This document shows positions 35,807 to 64,000 of a DNA stretch of 64,000 bases, piece by piece. Where the stretch lies: NCBI GenBank assembly GCA_029938715.1, contig JAOZUK010000001.1, positions 1-64,000 on the forward strand, written 5' to 3'. Positions within the stretch are counted from its first letter, which is position 1. Each line of letters starts with the position of its first letter. Both the position numbers and the translations under genes were made by a program. Under the pieces are notes generated by a model. That model was not told the origin of the DNA. It saw only the letters and a program-made list of their open reading frames with translations, and ran no database searches. Origin of the DNA: Bacteroidales bacterium. GTDB lineage: Bacteria; Bacteroidota; Bacteroidia; Bacteroidales; GCA-2748055.

Positions 35807-37168
35807 TTACAATTTAAGGTATACAACTTCTAGCCTTATACGTCTATTGTTGGTTGGAAGGTTACTCCAAAGTTTGGAAAATCGCGGATTAATTTTTCCA
35901 TCGTCCACCTGAAGTATGAAATCATTGACCGAATTTTCCCCATCCACCATGTATTGAAAGTGGAGAGGAATTTCAAATTTGTAGACATAGGTTGTATCGG
36001 AAAACATCCCTTCGGCATCGGCCTTTTTATAGCCCCCAAACTTGCTCGCCTGCTGGCTACTTACCAGGACAATGTAATCATAAATAGGCTCGTAGGCGCT
36101 ATCACTAAGAATGGTTCCCAGCATGAGCCTGTTTGGAAGATCGGCGATTGCAATCCCGCTCTCTTCTTCAGGGACCACATCAAAGACCAGTGTAGCCGAG
36201 TTGATGGACAGGGGTGACTTTGCCATCCACTCTGCCAGGCTGACCAGAGAGAAGCGGGTATTCACACCGGCCATCCCCTGTACATAACTGTATGCAGAGC
36301 TGGCGGTCTTGCTATCGATGATGGTGGAGAGGTAAGTCCCCGAATGATCATTTACAAATGTATTAACCTTCTGGGATGAATACTCATTGATGGAAAAGTA
36401 GGTCCAAACAAAATCCCGACCGGCTGTTGAATCAACCTCTGTGCTATCGTTGGCGTAGTTAAGGGAGACCCTGGATAGGGTATTATTTAGCAGCAATCTG
36501 GCCATTGTACCCTCTTCAGAGGGGGTCTCGGCAGTAATATAAAAACCATTGAAATAGTCCTTAAACACAGAATCATTTTGGAAGAAGTTCGTATCCGACC
36601 CTATAGCCAGCCACTTATCAATAAATTCCTGGTCTTCAATCACAAAATCAACGGTGGTTCCATCTTCGGGCACAATGCTCTTTACCACAAGGGGTACCGG
36701 ATTGAATTTTCCCTCTACATCATAGTCAGATTTATAGATGGAATCGAAAAAAATTCGCTCCTGGAACTCATGAACCGATATGGTAATTTCCTGCTCCATA
36801 TCGCCCACATAGTCATTAATAAGGATGGAAAGCATCAGGGTGTCAATTTCCGTGTTCGGCCCAACAATATAACCGGAAGTGCTATTGAATTGGGTGATTA
36901 CTGCAGCTTCGGATCTACCTACAATGGTATCCTCTACCCTTCCCAGCAACATTAGGTTGTTTGGATCAAAATTTGTTGCCGATGTAGTGAGCGGATTACC
37001 CGTTACCGGATAGGCATGGATCTCAAAGATGGTGTCATACAATAAAGATACTTCATCATCTGTTGGCAACAGATCTTCACCCAGACCACTGCTCCCGATC
37101 TCACATGACGAAATGAATCCGGCCATGATCATCATGATCGAAATAACCCACAAATCCCTCTTCTTCAT
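35807..37168 (-). CDS. DUF4270-type lipoprotein
   Basis: 453 aa; lipobox ISSC, IGSSGLGEDLLP start; DUF4270-like context beside GT5-like gene and panC. Confidence 0.8.
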   Translation of the reverse strand: MKKRDLWVISIMMIMAGFISSCEIGSSGLGEDLLPTDDEVSLLYDTIFEIHAYPVTGNPLTTSATNFDPNNLMLLGRVEDTIVGRSEAAVITQFNSTSGYIVGPNTEIDTLMLSILINDYVGDMEQEITISVHEFQERIFFDSIYKSDYDVEGKFNPVPLVVKSIVPEDGTTVDFVIEDQEFIDKWLAIGSDTNFFQNDSVFKDYFNGFYITAETPSEEGTMARLLLNNTLSRVSLNYANDSTEVDSTAGRDFVWTYFSINEYSSQKVNTFVNDHSGTYLSTIIDSKTASSAYSYVQGMAGVNTRFSLVSLAEWMAKSPLSINSATLVFDVVPEEESGIAIADLPNRLMLGTILSDSAYEPIYDYIVLVSSQQASKFGGYKKADAEGMFSDTTYVYKFEIPLHFQYMVDGENSVNDFILQVDDGKINPRFSKLWSNLPTNNRRIRLEVVYLKL

Positions 37169-57454: not shown

Positions 57455-58900
57455 TTAATATACCAGGGGCCTGTCTCTGTAGATATCTTTACAACCAAAT
57501 ATCAGATTCACTCCAAGCCACACATTTACGGCCCGGGTATCCTGTGGCCAGAACACAAGATTCAGTGCATTGTCTGAAATTACATAAAGATTGAAGGGGC
57601 CCGTATGAATTGAGAAGCCAGCACCCACATTTTTGAAGTAGGAATGAATGTAAGAGTAGCTAAGTGTCAGGTTCAGCCATTGACCCACAGCAAAGTTTGC
57701 GGAAGCTGTTACCGACTCAGCAATTTGTCCGGTCAGGAAATCGGTTCTTGACAGAAGACCGAAATTTATTTCAGGTGTCACTGAATAGGATGCTCCCACA
57801 TATAATTTGGTATTTAGCTTCCTGGAGTACACTCCTCCCGGTGCAAATTCAAGAAACCCGGAAAGACTATCGCCTATCTGGTTGAAGGCGCTATCCAGAT
57901 AATTCTCAAAGGTAAAATCGTCTGAGATTTCCAGCGGATCGATTTCGAATCCCGGAAAGTCATATTCAGTCTTATAGGTCATCTCATGCGTCTCATCTGT
58001 CCACTTAATATACCCCACATCAAGTAGACTGGCACTAAGCAACAGATTGTCTGTAGGCCGGTATTCAATACCCAGGTCTATTCCCAACCCAAAGTTCCTG
58101 GTATTAAAGGCATATTTTGGAAGCTGCCAGGGATCCAGGTCTTCAACCTCATCTTTAAGGGCAATATCGCTAATTTTTCCCTCTTCGTCATAGGTCACAT
58201 CTGCAAATGGCAAAGAGGCAGCAAAGTGCATATCCGATAGAATATGCCAGCTATCCTGCGAAGTGGTGAGAGAGAGATTGGAGTTCACGGTAGCTATATT
58301 TCCAACACCAAACAAAACCTTTCCCCTCACACCTATATTGAGGTTGTCCACAATGGCACCCGACCACCCCACCGAAACTTCATCAAATCCCATCCAGTCG
58401 GTAGAAAGACCATCCAGGTTGTAAGTTTTTCCATCCTCAGTACCATTTATAAGCAGCACTCCAAGATCACCAGGAACATAGAGACTGCCATCAAACCTGG
58501 TGGTGACATCCACCGAGAAAAAGCCGATCTCCGTCCTGAATCCCACCGATAGCCAGGAAGTTCCGGAATTAGACAGAAAGTAGTTGGTGGGCTTCAGTTT
58601 GTTCAGAAATGCCTCTTTGTCTCCCAGGGGATGAAGGAAGGTGATCAGAGAGTCCTGAGTGGGATGTGGATAGATCAAATCACTCCATGCATAAGGGCTT
58701 GAAGTCTCTTCAGTCCTGACCGGAGCCAGGAATGGAATGCCAATGTAGAGATCACAGCCCGGCTGATAGGCTGGATTAATCCGGTTGGTTTGAGGGACCC
58801 CTTGCATAAAATAGAGAGAATTACTCACCTGGGCTCCAGCCTCTATCCCAAATCCTGCTAAGATTCCTATACTAAGTATGAATTTGTAGAGTGACTTCAT
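57455..58900 (-). CDS. Outer-membrane beta-barrel-like protein (DUF5723-like)
   Basis: 481 aa; signal peptide ending AGAQ; VSNSLYFMQGVPQTNRINPAYQPGCDLYIGIPFLAPV; barrel-like alternating segments. Confidence 0.82.
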   Translation of the reverse strand: MKSLYKFILSIGILAGFGIEAGAQVSNSLYFMQGVPQTNRINPAYQPGCDLYIGIPFLAPVRTEETSSPYAWSDLIYPHPTQDSLITFLHPLGDKEAFLNKLKPTNYFLSNSGTSWLSVGFRTEIGFFSVDVTTRFDGSLYVPGDLGVLLINGTEDGKTYNLDGLSTDWMGFDEVSVGWSGAIVDNLNIGVRGKVLFGVGNIATVNSNLSLTTSQDSWHILSDMHFAASLPFADVTYDEEGKISDIALKDEVEDLDPWQLPKYAFNTRNFGLGIDLGIEYRPTDNLLLSASLLDVGYIKWTDETHEMTYKTEYDFPGFEIDPLEISDDFTFENYLDSAFNQIGDSLSGFLEFAPGGVYSRKLNTKLYVGASYSVTPEINFGLLSRTDFLTGQIAESVTASANFAVGQWLNLTLSYSYIHSYFKNVGAGFSIHTGPFNLYVISDNALNLVFWPQDTRAVNVWLGVNLIFGCKDIYRDRPLVY

Positions 58901-60531
58901 AACACCCTTGAATTAATGATGAGATCTGCGAACAATGAGAGCTTAAAATCCAGCGAGTAGTCCGAGTAGAGTTTCACATCTTTGCTTCCCAACTCAGAGG
59001 TATTCATACGTGCATGAACCTGCAAATAGCGAATCTCTTCAAACTTGCCCAGCTTTTCAGCAGGAAAAATGGCTGTATTTTCCTCTTCTCCTGCCTGGAT
59101 CAACTTACCCTCCTGGTCTACCTCAGAGGCCGCCAGTAAAACCTGGTTATCTCCAAAAACAGAATCCAGAACCTGGTAGAATTCATCCAGCAGATATACC
59201 TGAAGATCAAGTTTAATTGGCAACTCATTGACTGTACTCATAGTAAGGTTCACCTGCCGAATCATGCTTGTATCAATCCCCTGATCACCCATCTCAAATT
59301 CTATAGTATCTTCCAAAGCAATCACGGTCGACCGAAAGTCAAGGGGAAGAAGAAACTCTATTTCAATGATAAGCCGGCTGGTATCCAGCACGAAATGCGA
59401 TTCATCCCCTGTTCCCTCCTGAGTTCTGCCGGATACCTTGTAAGAAAGAGAGGTGGGTCCAACAGCCAGTAATTCGTTAAAGTTGCTGGTCTCCCGGTTG
59501 ATATGGAATTCCTCACTTACTGCACTCCCGATTTGGGTCATGCCAGGTGCAGGAACCATAAATGGATGCCCTTCATAGAACTCCAGCGTTACAGATGATC
59601 CGTCCGTTCCGTTGGAAATTGCACTGTCCATCGTAATTACAAGGGGAACACCCACAGAATTGGTTATCCATACATTGATGCGGGGATCGGCAAACTTCAC
59701 CGCGGCCAGTTCCGGATTCTCAGTGTAAAAGGGAATCTCAATGGAGCCACGTTCTGTAAATACGTTCCTGGAATCGATATATCCAAATAGGCTGTAGAAA
59801 CCCATGTCCAGGAAATTCAAATCAATTTGACATATATCGTCAGGATCCACCGGATTGCCAGAGTTGGTCAGCACCAGGTCAAAATCGATCTGAATTACAT
59901 TGGAATCACCCTTCTCAAAAGTTTCAATATAGTAGTAGTCAGTAAGAACCCTACCAGAATCTTCAAATACTCCACTCTCATCACTACACACCAGTGTAAC
60001 AAAAAATGGTTCTCCCCGGGGATCAAGAATCTGCTCACTGCTGATATTTACATATCCATTGTGTTTAAATGAACTCATTACCTCGAGCAGGATCTCTCCT
60101 CCCTTGATCCGAATGCTATCCACCCGGTCGTCCCCATCAAGCTGGATTGCGATAATCTTATTTTTCAGAAAATGCACAATGTCTCCCGGATTACTCTCTG
60201 TAAACTCCGGAATATTTACATCGGCGGATAGATAGGTCTCGGTATAGACAGCATTGGGAATATCCTCTATGGTGTCGGCCATCACATTTACCACTGTATC
60301 GGAGTAAGCAAGATAGATCAGTCCATCATCAAATTCGCGGGCATAACCTGCCGAATCCACATATTCAACAATGTCGCCTATGTTCAAAGAACCATAAAAC
60401 AGAGGGGCTATCAGTTCCGGATGGATCTCAACCTCATCCGAGAGCTTATCTAGATTAAAATACTCCTTCTGACAATTGGTTAGCAGAAGTGCGCCTGCCA
60501 TCAGGAACAGTATACCGAGTTGACGCTTCAT
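58897..60531 (-). CDS. Large lipoprotein of unknown function
   Basis: 544 aa; lipobox LLLTNC-QKEYF; beta-rich; ATGA overlap with 57455..58900. Confidence 0.75.
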   Translation of the reverse strand: MKRQLGILFLMAGALLLTNCQKEYFNLDKLSDEVEIHPELIAPLFYGSLNIGDIVEYVDSAGYAREFDDGLIYLAYSDTVVNVMADTIEDIPNAVYTETYLSADVNIPEFTESNPGDIVHFLKNKIIAIQLDGDDRVDSIRIKGGEILLEVMSSFKHNGYVNISSEQILDPRGEPFFVTLVCSDESGVFEDSGRVLTDYYYIETFEKGDSNVIQIDFDLVLTNSGNPVDPDDICQIDLNFLDMGFYSLFGYIDSRNVFTERGSIEIPFYTENPELAAVKFADPRINVWITNSVGVPLVITMDSAISNGTDGSSVTLEFYEGHPFMVPAPGMTQIGSAVSEEFHINRETSNFNELLAVGPTSLSYKVSGRTQEGTGDESHFVLDTSRLIIEIEFLLPLDFRSTVIALEDTIEFEMGDQGIDTSMIRQVNLTMSTVNELPIKLDLQVYLLDEFYQVLDSVFGDNQVLLAASEVDQEGKLIQAGEEENTAIFPAEKLGKFEEIRYLQVHARMNTSELGSKDVKLYSDYSLDFKLSLFADLIINSRVL

Positions 60532-60534
60532 GAT

Positions 60535-63294
60535 TTATTCAATTGAATAGTTGTATAAAAAGTTATTTGTGCTTCCCACGATCAGATTGAACCTGCTGTC
60601 TGATCCTGCAAAATAGCCTATACTAAACCTGGTTGATCCCTCCAGCGGAAATCCTTCATAAAGCGATCCGTCTGAATTGACCAGGTAAATCCTGTTCCGG
60701 GAGCGGTCTGAAATTCCAATTTTAACATCTGAGGGCGAAAATTTATATATATCGGGCATCTCACTGATCTTTCCCCTTACCCTGTAACTAAACAGCCGTT
60801 TCCCATCCTGGAGCAATACAGTTAACTCATCTCCATCGGCTATAATAAATTCAGGAATTCCATCTTTATTCAGATCTCCCATCCTGAAAAAATGATCGTT
60901 GGATACCTCCAGTTTAAGAAGTTCCGAAACAGTTCCATCCATATATACCGCTCTTACGCTCCCTGATGTGTCTGTGGAGATCCACCTGGGTTTCTCTTCC
61001 CTCAGATTCATATCCAGGGCGACAGGGTTCCGGGGAGAAAATGCGATGCGCTCCTTCACCTTGATGCGCTCCTTACCTCGCCTGTCCAGAAAATAGCTTC
61101 TGTTCCTATCAGATAACACGATATAATCCTTTTCTCTGATTCTGAAATGCTGAATCTCACCCGTCACAACTGACTCGGTTTTCCCAAACTTCCAACCGGT
61201 GAGCAGATTCCCCTCAATATCATACACGTAGATTTTGCGATCTTCCGCTGCCACAAACAGCCTGTAATCCCTGCTTTTATCATAGTCAAATAATGCCATG
61301 GCATTGGTTGCATTGGACCTGAGTGAAATGGGATATCGCTCCACATAATTCCCATTCCTGTCGATCAAATGGATCTTTTCCGGGGTATTAAAGAGAAACT
61401 GCAACCTTCCATTTTTATAAAAATCCACCTGATGAATGGTTCCCATAATGGGCCCGTCCAGAGGTAATTTCCAGAGAATCCTTCCTGTACTGTTGATCAG
61501 GTAAACGCGGTGAGCCTCATCCTGGACCATGATCTCCTTCTCTGAAGTGTTGTGATTTACTACGAGTACCGGTTTGGTGGCTGCTGAGGAATCCAGTAGA
61601 CTCTCCCAGACTGTCAGCGCTTTCTCCTTGATATGAGAGGTATACTTTAAGCTGACACTTTGATAATAGAGGCGATCCTCTGTACTGTATTGAACCACAA
61701 CACCTGGAATTCTTCGCAGGAACAACTCCAGTGGCCCTAACTTTTCCAAAGCTCTCCCGCTCAGCAGCTCCTGCTTATAATCCAAGAAACTGAATGGCTT
61801 TAAGAATAAGGTGATATTACTTCTGTTAGAGAGGTAATCTGACATCTCTTTGTAGACCGGATCACTTATAAATGTTTTGTGAAGTACATTCTGGTAGATC
61901 ACCCTGGATATGGCATCAACGGAGGGTCCAAATATCAGATAGTTCTCAAACACCGTAAAATAGCTATTGAACATACGTGCTACAGGTGTTCCTCTGAAGA
62001 ATGGGTCGGGCAAACTGTAAATATTAAAACTGGTCTGGCTATCCAGCCGGTATACATGCCGCAGTGAATTCATATCAAAGGAGTTGACCTGAAGATATTG
62101 CTCCACCCACCTCATCACAACCTCCATGGTTTCGCTGCGACTTCTGGTTTCAATAACCAACAACTCATCTTCGGTTTTCTCAGTTATACCTTCCATGGCA
62201 AACCAGGCCATTTCATCATCCATAATGGTTGCCAGATCTTCAATAGGATCTATACCATACACCTTATCTAATCGCTGCAATTCAACCTCAATTTCCGACC
62301 CATGGCTAAGTCCCATCAAATAGGGGGTGATCTGTGCCCTGAACTTGGCCTGGTCACTTATACCCAGGTGCAGAAAATAGTTGATTCCTGAGGGTAATAT
62401 TTCATGGATCTCCATCCTCACAGGCGATTGATCGGAGAATGCGCCAAGGAAAAAAGGAGCATTTGGATCCGAGTAAGTCATTCCATTGAGAATGAAAGCA
62501 TCCTTTTTAATGTCCAGATCCAATTCTCCCCACGAGGCAAGTTTCGAAAACAATCTGAGGATTTCCCAACGGGATTCGTCAATTACCGGATAAAACAGTT
62601 GTGGTAATCTTTCATAGTTAACATATACATTGGCATGGACATATCGTCCCTCTGTCTCCTTCACCATGCTCAATCCCAGCTCTTCGGTAAGATCACTCTC
62701 ATCATGTATGGTACGAATGGATTGCTCCACCAGCATGGAGGATGAGCTTAACAGGCATAAACCGTTAATAGAACCAAACGTAAATTTTCCTGGAATAAGG
62801 CCTGGCTCCCCGGAAACATCATGCAAAGTTTCCGCCTCATATTTCCTGCTGTTAATCATGGCCTTCTCCTCCAGCAGGGAGATCATCAAATGATCAAATT
62901 CGTTTTCGCTGTACGAATCGGAATATTTCAGATAGAAGAGCGGCACAAGCTGCTCTTTACCCACCAGGTGAATAGAGAAGTGTAACCCCTCCTTTAAAAG
63001 AAGTTCTTTCAATGGCTCCGATGAATTAACCTGTGCCAGTGCGATTTGAAGCAAAGAATCCAGTTCAGTCTGGCCTGTAGTATTTATAAAGTCTTTCCAG
63101 ATCCTGTTCCCGGCCAGAAATGATTCTGTCAGGTACTCGAAATCAATATCCTCTACAAAGAGGATGGCGTCCTCAGGGACTGCTTCCAATATTTCAATGG
63201 GGCTGATTTTATCAAATCTGCTCAGCAGGAATACAAGGATCAATGCAACACAAACCACAGCAAACAGCCCACCATATATAATACGCTTCAACAT
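60535..63294 (-). CDS. Membrane-anchored periplasmic protein with C-terminal propeller-like repeats
   Basis: 919 aa; N-terminal anchor MLKRIIYGGLFAVVCVALILVFLLS; C-terminal repeats (VYLINSTGRILWKLPL, IHLIDRNGNYVERYP, IYVYDIEGNLLTGW, IYLVNSDGSLYEGFPL) and GDLNKDGIPEFIIADG. Confidence 0.8.
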   Translation of the reverse strand: MLKRIIYGGLFAVVCVALILVFLLSRFDKISPIEILEAVPEDAILFVEDIDFEYLTESFLAGNRIWKDFINTTGQTELDSLLQIALAQVNSSEPLKELLLKEGLHFSIHLVGKEQLVPLFYLKYSDSYSENEFDHLMISLLEEKAMINSRKYEAETLHDVSGEPGLIPGKFTFGSINGLCLLSSSSMLVEQSIRTIHDESDLTEELGLSMVKETEGRYVHANVYVNYERLPQLFYPVIDESRWEILRLFSKLASWGELDLDIKKDAFILNGMTYSDPNAPFFLGAFSDQSPVRMEIHEILPSGINYFLHLGISDQAKFRAQITPYLMGLSHGSEIEVELQRLDKVYGIDPIEDLATIMDDEMAWFAMEGITEKTEDELLVIETRSRSETMEVVMRWVEQYLQVNSFDMNSLRHVYRLDSQTSFNIYSLPDPFFRGTPVARMFNSYFTVFENYLIFGPSVDAISRVIYQNVLHKTFISDPVYKEMSDYLSNRSNITLFLKPFSFLDYKQELLSGRALEKLGPLELFLRRIPGVVVQYSTEDRLYYQSVSLKYTSHIKEKALTVWESLLDSSAATKPVLVVNHNTSEKEIMVQDEAHRVYLINSTGRILWKLPLDGPIMGTIHQVDFYKNGRLQFLFNTPEKIHLIDRNGNYVERYPISLRSNATNAMALFDYDKSRDYRLFVAAEDRKIYVYDIEGNLLTGWKFGKTESVVTGEIQHFRIREKDYIVLSDRNRSYFLDRRGKERIKVKERIAFSPRNPVALDMNLREEKPRWISTDTSGSVRAVYMDGTVSELLKLEVSNDHFFRMGDLNKDGIPEFIIADGDELTVLLQDGKRLFSYRVRGKISEMPDIYKFSPSDVKIGISDRSRNRIYLVNSDGSLYEGFPLEGSTRFSIGYFAGSDSRFNLIVGSTNNFLYNYSIE

Positions 63295-63441
63295 ACCAGA
63301 TTGGTTTAACCCAAAAATATAAATTTCACAAGCAGGTTAGCGGGAAAATTACCAACACTTCCGCTACTTGTCCACAAGGGATTCAGGTCAAAACCATTAT
63401 TGGTACAGTTTTTGCTTTACTTTTGCGTATTTTTTAATCCC

Positions 63442-64000
63442 ATGCTTTTTCGTACCCTATTCATAATTAGCACGTTAATTTCAACTCTGCAGCTATATGG
63501 GCAACAGGTTCAGGTAATCAGCTCTTCGGACCGGTCCGCCATTGAACATGTAGCGGTATACAATACCACCCGGGAAAGATCAGCCCTTACCGACTCCCTG
63601 GGGATGATCGACCTGCGCATTTTCCCCATGACAGATACCATTGTCTTTCAGCATCCCTCCTTTGTAAACCGTCAATTCAGCCACCAACAAATTACCGATC
63701 AGTCCACAATTGTTCTTCACAGAAAACGGATTTTAATCGATGAGTATGTCATCTCAGCTTCGAAATCGAGGGAGAGCAAGCTGATTATTCCCAACATGGT
63801 GGATGTGATTGAAGAGAAAGAACTTAAAGAATCCACAGGGCTAACCGCTGCAGAGATTCTGGAAGGAACGGGTAACATCATGGTGCAAAAAACACAGGGA
63901 GGAGGGGGAAGTCCAATTCTTCGTGGTTTTGAGGCCAATAAGATCCTTCTTGTGCTGGATGGGGTCAGGCTGAACAACGCCATCTATCGCAACGGGCACC
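63442..64000 (+). CDS. TonB-dependent receptor, N-terminal part (truncated by window end)
   Basis: Absent from the ORF track because it has no stop in the window. My translation from ATG 63442: MLFRTLFIISTLISTLQLYGQQ…DEYVISASKSRESKLIIPNMVDVIEEKELKESTGLTAAEILEGTGNIMVQKTQGGGGSPILRGFEANKILLVLDGVRLNNAIYRNGH, i.e. TonB-box/plug motifs. Confidence 0.9.
   Translation, partial: MLFRTLFIISTLISTLQLYGQQVQVISSSDRSAIEHVAVYNTTRERSALTDSLGMIDLRIFPMTDTIVFQHPSFVNRQFSHQQITDQSTIVLHRKRILIDEYVISASKSRESKLIIPNMVDVIEEKELKESTGLTAAEILEGTGNIMVQKTQGGGGSPILRGFEANKILLVLDGVRLNNAIYRNGH

What the first reader, a model, noticed from the sequence alone, without database searches (positions are those of the whole stretch)
57455..63294. 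Three-gene envelope operon of unknown function: anchored propeller protein, lipoprotein, outer-membrane barrel
Three - strand genes are tightly packed (60535/60531 gap of 3 nt; 58897-58900 ATGA overlap). The first encodes a 919-aa protein with an N-terminal membrane anchor, a DUF3352-like region (inference) and C-terminal propeller repeats with an FG-GAP-like GDLNKDGIPEFIIADG motif. The second encodes a 544-aa lipoprotein whose mature start C-QKEYF could allow surface or outer-membrane placement. The third encodes a DUF5723-like barrel. Together they could span inner membrane, periplasm and outer membrane, so this looks like a dedicated trans-envelope machine or assembly pathway rather than unrelated genes. 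This is the best candidate in the window for an undescribed system.
Basis: partly seen in the sequence, partly recalled or inferred. Interest (0 to 1): 0.6.

Follow-up and report, generated by a model that had tools for sequence, protein, structure and literature searches.

The report
Conserved outer-membrane barrel and lipoprotein operon
Three uncharacterised cell-envelope genes really do form an old, conserved operon; its core is an outer-membrane barrel that, throughout the Bacteroidota, almost always travels with its own lipoprotein, so it looks like an undescribed envelope module related in design, but not identical, to the recently described BamG-BamH pair.

Summary
The three minus-strand genes A (60535-63294), B (58897-60531) and C (57455-58900) are intact and tightly packed, and A-B-C recurs in the same order and strand in 58 of 65 named Bacteroidales loci with enough downstream sequence, down to ~30% identity and after the flanks have changed. 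The core is B-C. C (DUF5723) occurs in 179 of 297 Bacteroidota genomes. Where B is recognisable, C lies directly downstream in 57 of 67 genomes, never upstream. Where it is not, 34 of 36 C genes still have a closely packed upstream gene, at least 28 of them lipoproteins (background 6%). C is remotely homologous to the FadL-type barrel BamG (hhalign 96%), but the genome has its own BamG elsewhere. B has no named family; it resembles DUF4621 (PDB 4h3w), and is not BamH. A is a membrane-tethered periplasmic DUF3352-plus-BamB-like-propeller protein that joins the pair in some lineages and can stand alone. A physical inner-to-outer-membrane machine is not shown; in other families A appears to be a lipoprotein. 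The MlaEF link is weak. Best reading: a BamG/BamH-like outer-membrane scaffold, function untested.

The parts
60535..63294 (-). Gene A, 919 aa: N-terminal TM anchor, DUF3352-like alpha/beta region (about 35-550), C-terminal BamB-like beta-propeller (about 560-919); predicted periplasmic
   Evidence: DUF3352 in 10/21 relatives; AF2 pLDDT 88.9; Foldseek: designed propellers E 2e-12, E. coli BamB 6lyq_B E 2.7e-8
58897..60531 (-). Gene B, 544 aa lipoprotein (Cys20), all-beta, no named family; distant relative of DUF4621 (PDB 4h3w); sizes elsewhere about 180 to 930 aa
   Evidence: AF2 pLDDT 85.8; Foldseek 4h3w E 1.2e-10, prob 1.00; DUF4621-DUF5723 gene pair
57455..58900 (-). Gene C, 481 aa outer-membrane barrel, DUF5723, FadL/BamG superfamily; N-terminal NPA motif
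   Evidence: PF18990 E 2.3e-88; NPA in 44/47; hhalign vs BamG 96.4%, E 1.4e-9
58897..58900 (-). ATGA overlap of B stop and C start; -4 is also the commonest spacing in the distant B-C pairs
60532..60534 (-). 3-nt gap between A stop and B start
   Evidence: 2-3 nt also in 15 related loci
63400..63999 (+). Start of a divergently transcribed TonB-dependent receptor (810 aa in full, heme/hemoglobin-receptor-like), cut by the window end; conserved neighbour of A
   Evidence: 32/62 loci; TIGR01785 E 3e-55, below its cut-off; PhuR

Best explanation
The locus encodes an outer-membrane module. C is a FadL-type barrel whose dedicated partner is lipoprotein B, tethered at the barrel, probably on the cell surface; its conserved acidic-aromatic N-terminal tail would dock on C and its beta-sandwich domains would form a lid or canopy of lineage-specific size. 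In this lineage A, a periplasmic propeller protein tethered to the inner membrane, is co-expressed and probably contacts the periplasmic side of the B-C complex or its clients. The most likely role is accessory outer-membrane assembly or maintenance, in the manner of BamG-BamH (or BamG2-BamH2), rather than uptake of one nutrient. Shown: conserved operon, B-C pairing, superfamily of C, fold classes of A and B, A's independence. Inferred: surface exposure of B, physical B-C and A contact, the assembly role.
For: A-B-C in order on one strand in 58 of 65 loci with at least 3 kb after A, also where flanking genes differ. C directly downstream of B in 57 of 67 genomes, 0 upstream. 34 of 36 C genes from genomes where the B profile was silent have a same-strand gene closely upstream, 28 with a strict lipobox; background 18/305. 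DUF4621-DUF5723 pair in G421. A paralogous short B'-C' pair in the same genome (L063) and a tandem A-B-C-B-C (L108) show that B-C duplicates as a unit. C vs BamG 96.4% over 161 columns including the N-terminal tail. B's post-Cys consensus C-x-K-D-E-F-D-F-D-K-L is enriched in acidic residues (0.34 vs 0.16), like surface-export signals (PMC5080379). DUF5723 in 108 of 141 genera suggests a general role. Precedent: BamG (FadL-type) binds surface lipoprotein BamH, and BamG2-BamH2 is a putative operon (PMC12578637, PMC12611786).
Against: No interaction data and no structure of C. B is not homologous to BamH (hhalign 1.7%). Only 3 of 50 B proteins carry a strict K-(D/E)2 export signal. A-C lacks B in family f19 (L174-177). 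FadL relatives more often transport hydrophobic molecules. Across the phylum A's presence is only weakly tied to B (p 0.014) and not to C (p 0.14). The divergent TonB receptor would also fit nutrient uptake.
Confidence: 0.45

Rival explanations
1. B-C is a FadL-type transporter: C lets a hydrophobic molecule pass through its lateral opening, B is a substrate-binding lid, and A is a periplasmic receptor or shuttle; the neighbouring TonB receptor serves the same or a related nutrient.
For: C belongs to the superfamily of FadL/TodX channels (the BamG profile itself reaches TodX). A heme-receptor-like TonB receptor is divergently placed in 32 of 62 loci.
Against: Very broad distribution (108 of 141 genera) without an associated catabolic gene; B varies from about 180 to 930 aa and evolves faster than C, unlike a binding protein for one ligand; most B-C pairs elsewhere have other neighbours.
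Confidence: 0.3
2. A dedicated inner-to-outer-membrane bridge: A anchored in the inner membrane reaches C-B and moves lipid or protein across the periplasm, possibly together with MlaEF next door.
For: Operon conservation, N-terminal hydrophobic segment in 40 of 41 A proteins, MlaEF adjacent in this and related genomes.
Against: A looks like a lipoprotein in other families; A is missing from most B-C genomes and B-C is missing beside A in six loci; MlaF is convergent and adjacent in only 15 of 50 loci; the model of A suggests two globular parts rather than an extended bridge (judged from secondary structure only).
Confidence: 0.12
3. C is a PorV-like shuttle of the type IX secretion system and B its cargo adaptor.
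For: PorV is also FadL-type (PMC12578637); gldKLMN lies within 10 kb.
Against: SprA is present in almost all sampled genera, many of them without detectable A, B or C; B-C pairs elsewhere are mostly not near T9SS genes as far as their neighbours were read.
Confidence: 0.06
4. Unrelated envelope genes kept adjacent by chance or slow rearrangement.
For: Vertical inheritance alone preserves some synteny; MlaEF and ManC neighbours show this in near relatives.
Against: A-B-C survives in loci whose flanks have changed, and B-C recurs phylum-wide, often with overlapping reading frames, including paralogous copies.
Confidence: 0.02

Closest known systems
BamG-BamH of the Bacteroidota BAM complex (PMC12611786, PMC12578637) and the BamG2-BamH2 putative operon
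   Same: FadL-superfamily outer-membrane barrel paired with a lipoprotein that has a conserved N-terminal tail; C is remotely homologous to BamG
   Different: C is DUF5723, not BamG (13 bits against a cut-off of 250; own BamG elsewhere). B is not homologous to BamH (own BamH-like protein at 35807-37168). B precedes C in an operon, and A has no BamG-BamH counterpart
FadL/TodX hydrophobic-compound channels
   Same: Superfamily, N-terminal NPA motif
   Different: Near-constant lipoprotein partner, no direct profile match to TodX or FadL, no substrate known
DUF4621 / PDB 4h3w (BDI_1231, Parabacteroides distasonis)
   Same: Fold match to B (Foldseek E 1.2e-10, prob 1.00), weak sequence match (E 0.039), same position before DUF5723
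   Different: Shorter (376 aa), narrow distribution (1 of 149 genomes), low identity, low global TM-score
BamB / PQQ-type propeller
   Same: C-terminal propeller of A resembles E. coli BamB
   Different: A carries a TM anchor and a DUF3352 region; the best matches are other propellers, so this is a fold resemblance only
MlaEF phospholipid ABC transporter
   Same: Neighbouring genes in this genome
   Different: Convergent, not in the operon, adjacency lineage-limited

Membership tests
DUF5723 (PF18990), gene C | Score over the curated Pfam cut-off | tested here: met
   297.8 bits vs 26.8, E 2.3e-88
FadL superfamily, gene C | Profile homology to a structurally proven FadL-type barrel | tested here: met
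   hhalign vs BamG alignment 96.4%, E 1.4e-9, 161 columns; only 47% with a narrower alignment
FadL superfamily, gene C | 14-stranded barrel with lateral opening | not tested
   No structure of C was predicted; both prediction jobs went to A and B
BamG | Match over the NF053685 equivalog cut-off | tested here: not met
   13.2 bits vs 250; true BamG at G000:C934
BamH | Homology of B to BamH | tested here: not met
   hhalign probability 1.7% against the own BamH-like protein, a single sequence; no NCBIfam match of B
DUF4621, gene B | Match over the Pfam cut-off | tested here: not met
   B has no Pfam match; the relation is by fold and synteny
Surface-exposed Bacteroidota lipoprotein, gene B | Lipid-bearing cysteine after a signal peptide | tested here: met
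   Cys20 invariant in 50 of 50
Surface-exposed Bacteroidota lipoprotein, gene B | Export signal K-(D/E)2 or acidic equivalent after the Cys | tested here: inconclusive
   Family consensus x-K-D-E-F, acidic fraction 0.34 vs 0.16, but only 3 of 50 strict matches
DUF3352, gene A | Match to PF11832 | tested here: inconclusive
   Not in the window protein; 10 of 21 relatives match, best 8.5e-13
BamB-like propeller, gene A | Beta-propeller fold | tested here: met
   AF2 model and Foldseek
Trans-envelope complex | Physical association of A, B and C across both membranes | not testable with these tools
   No multimer prediction or experiment available

The most novel reading that the evidence does not exclude
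A-B-C is a second, BAM-independent outer-membrane assembly or transport machine of the Bacteroidota: a FadL-type barrel with its own surface canopy, serviced from the periplasm by a membrane-tethered propeller protein.
Probability: 0.15. Interest if true: 0.8.

Novelty: new variant of a known kind. Interest (0 to 1): 0.5.

Why it matters
DUF5723 barrels and their lipoprotein partners occur in most sampled Bacteroidota genera, yet no paper in the held library mentions DUF5723. Recognising that the barrel is FadL/BamG-like and nearly always preceded by a lipoprotein gene, that the orphan crystal structure 4h3w belongs to one such partner family, and that a propeller protein joins them in Bacteroidales, turns three unknown genes into one testable envelope module. 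If it acts in outer-membrane assembly it would extend the recently discovered BamG-BamH principle to a parallel pathway; if it is a transporter it would be a widespread two-component channel.

Tried and rejected
C as BamG: rejected (own BamG found). B as BamH: rejected. C against the PDB by sequence profile: nothing meaningful. The first BamG-C profile comparison, with a narrow alignment, was inconclusive (47%, 26 columns); it rose to 96% only after distant C proteins were added. T9SS link by SprA co-occurrence: uninformative because SprA is nearly universal. MlaEF link: lineage-limited. Presence/absence of A with C: not significant. Exact Bacteroidota promoter motif: one match in the window, not at the operon and no more than chance; the sigma-70 scan is below its shuffle mean. 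A Foldseek search of A returned only propellers among the rows shown, so the DUF3352 fold is still unplaced. Strict lipobox matching on the aligned B set missed many rows and was redone from the aligned cysteine. Two scripts for the upstream-gene test stopped on a file error before the complete run.
Full report
Check of the observation. C is DUF5723 (E 2.3e-88) and A has a weakly matching propeller. B has no Pfam or NCBIfam match, alone or as a family. DUF3352 is not detectable in the window protein but is in 10 of 21 relatives, so that inference was right.

Conservation of the operon. The window lies on contig C354 of a 6.2-Mb assembly whose named relatives are uncultured Bacteroidales. In genus and family relatives A-B-C recurs with MlaEF, ManC and gldKLMN next door. 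Among 80 named loci collected with A, 58 have A, B and C in order on one strand. Of the other 22, five run off the contig within or soon after B, ten have at most 1.4 kb left after A, and seven (six with at least 7.9 kb after A, one with 3.0 kb) have A without B-C. This sample was chosen by similarity to A and leans towards near relatives. Many of the loci lack MlaEF and gld genes, so the operon outlives its surroundings. Marinifilum, Labilibaculum and a Prolixibacteraceae isolate have it.

The core is B-C. The same sample of 297 genomes of the phylum was searched with each family. A profile: 54 genomes; B profile: 72; C profile: 110; Pfam DUF5723: 179, in 108 of 141 genera. Presence of B and C is strongly associated (47 genomes vs 27 expected, p 2e-8), A and B weakly (p 0.014), A and C not (p 0.14); these tests ignore relatedness. 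In 57 of 67 genomes with both B and a listed DUF5723 gene, C is directly downstream of B on the same strand, and never upstream. I then took 40 C-positive genomes where the B profile was silent. C was found again in 36; 34 have a same-strand ORF ending close to C, 28 with a strict lipobox. Five of the other six also look like lipoproteins by eye, and the sixth is cut by a contig end. The same test on other genes of the related loci gives 18 of 305. Twenty of the 34 are from one family with a 178-199-aa lipoprotein, usually with the -4 overlap; the rest are 421-766 aa from many families. So B evolves beyond recognition while the pairing persists. Two further signs of a unit: a paralogous short B' and C' pair in this genome (L063) and a tandem A-B-C-B-C (L108).

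What C is. Most C proteins carry an N-terminal NPA motif (44 of 47). A broad C alignment (A8) matches a BamG alignment (A7) with 96.4% probability, E 1.4e-9, over 161 columns from the N-terminal tail onward. The BamG alignment finds solved BamG and TodX chains in the PDB, and BamG is a 14-stranded FadL-family protein (PMC12611786). C is not BamG itself: it scores 13 bits against a cut-off of 250, and the genome has a separate BamG (G000:C934). I did not predict the structure of C, so the barrel rests on homology.

What B is. The model (pLDDT 85.8) is all-beta with long strands. Its only confident PDB match is 4h3w, a structural-genomics-type entry from Parabacteroides distasonis for which I found no descriptive paper (Foldseek E 1.2e-10, prob 1.00, but a low global TM-score). 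The sequence profile independently puts 4h3w first, at E 0.039. 4h3w belongs to DUF4621. In genome G421 a DUF4621 gene lies directly in front of a DUF5723 gene, which makes the fold match a family link. B differs from the own BamH-like protein. After the lipid-bearing cysteine comes a conserved acidic-aromatic tail, C-x-K-D-E-F-D-F-D-K-L. This resembles the surface-export signals C-x-K-(D/E)2 and SDDFE (PMC5080379), but only 3 of 50 match the strict signal. In some close relatives B is only about 220 aa, lacking residues of about 90-400, so tail and C-terminal domain appear to be the minimal protein.

What A is. The model (pLDDT 88.9) has a TM helix, an alpha/beta region with an apparent internal repeat (from the order of secondary-structure elements; inference) and a propeller that matches designed propellers and E. 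coli BamB. An N-terminal hydrophobic segment is present in 40 of 41 family members, but A begins like a lipoprotein in two other families (L186, L197; L192, L198). In family f19 A lacks the propeller and is followed directly by C, without B (L174-177). A is therefore best described as a membrane-tethered periplasmic protein linked to C and B, not as a proven inner-membrane bridge.

Neighbours. A divergent TonB-dependent receptor of the heme-receptor type starts 105 bp from A and is conserved in 32 of 62 loci with room upstream. Convergent MlaF follows C in 15 of 50. T9SS SprA is in 137 of 141 genera and does not discriminate.

Mechanism. Shown: conserved operon, phylum-wide pairing of C with an upstream lipoprotein, FadL superfamily of C, fold classes of A and B. 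Inferred: B sits on the surface of C with its tail docked in the barrel, as BamH does on BamG (PMC12578637); A works from the periplasm. An accessory role in outer-membrane assembly is favoured because of the breadth of distribution, the variable canopy-sized lipoprotein and the BamG2-BamH2 precedent. A FadL-type transporter is the main rival. The claim that this is a conserved module is firm (about 0.95); the assembly role is a lean (about 0.45).

Novelty. The pieces are known kinds of protein, but I found no description of the module in the held library. I call it a new variant of a known kind: FadL-type barrel plus dedicated lipoprotein.

Noticed in passing
window 35807-37168 (-): A BamH-like protein (453 aa, NF053686 E 1.6e-18, below its cut-off of 420 bits) lies in the same window, between glmS and a glycogen-synthase-like gene, about 20 kb from the operon.
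   Followed up: partly
window 63400-63999 and L061:6401-8833 (+): Heme-receptor-like TonB-dependent receptor divergent from gene A, conserved in 32 of 62 loci; possible functional partner.
   Followed up: partly
L058, L059 (also L068, L072), L117: Gene B in short form (about 220 aa) next to an ordinary C: the middle of B, residues about 90-400, is absent. Either an in-frame deletion or the ancestral form.
   Followed up: partly
L063:7378-9515 (own genome, contig C795): Second, short B'-C' pair without A.
   Followed up: partly
L196 (G278): Gene A interrupted by two TAG stops and only fragments of C, in a genome without SprA: apparently a decaying system.
   Followed up: no
L181, L182: B-C pairs convergent with two adjacent membrane-protein genes that look like the LPS-export permeases LptF/LptG (by eye, not tested).
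   Followed up: no
G061:C20, G262:C21, G286:C30 and others: Second DUF5723 proteins in open frames of about 680-770 aa, i.e. probably with an extra domain.
   Followed up: no
L108:7893-18753: Tandem A-B-C-B-C arrangement.
   Followed up: no
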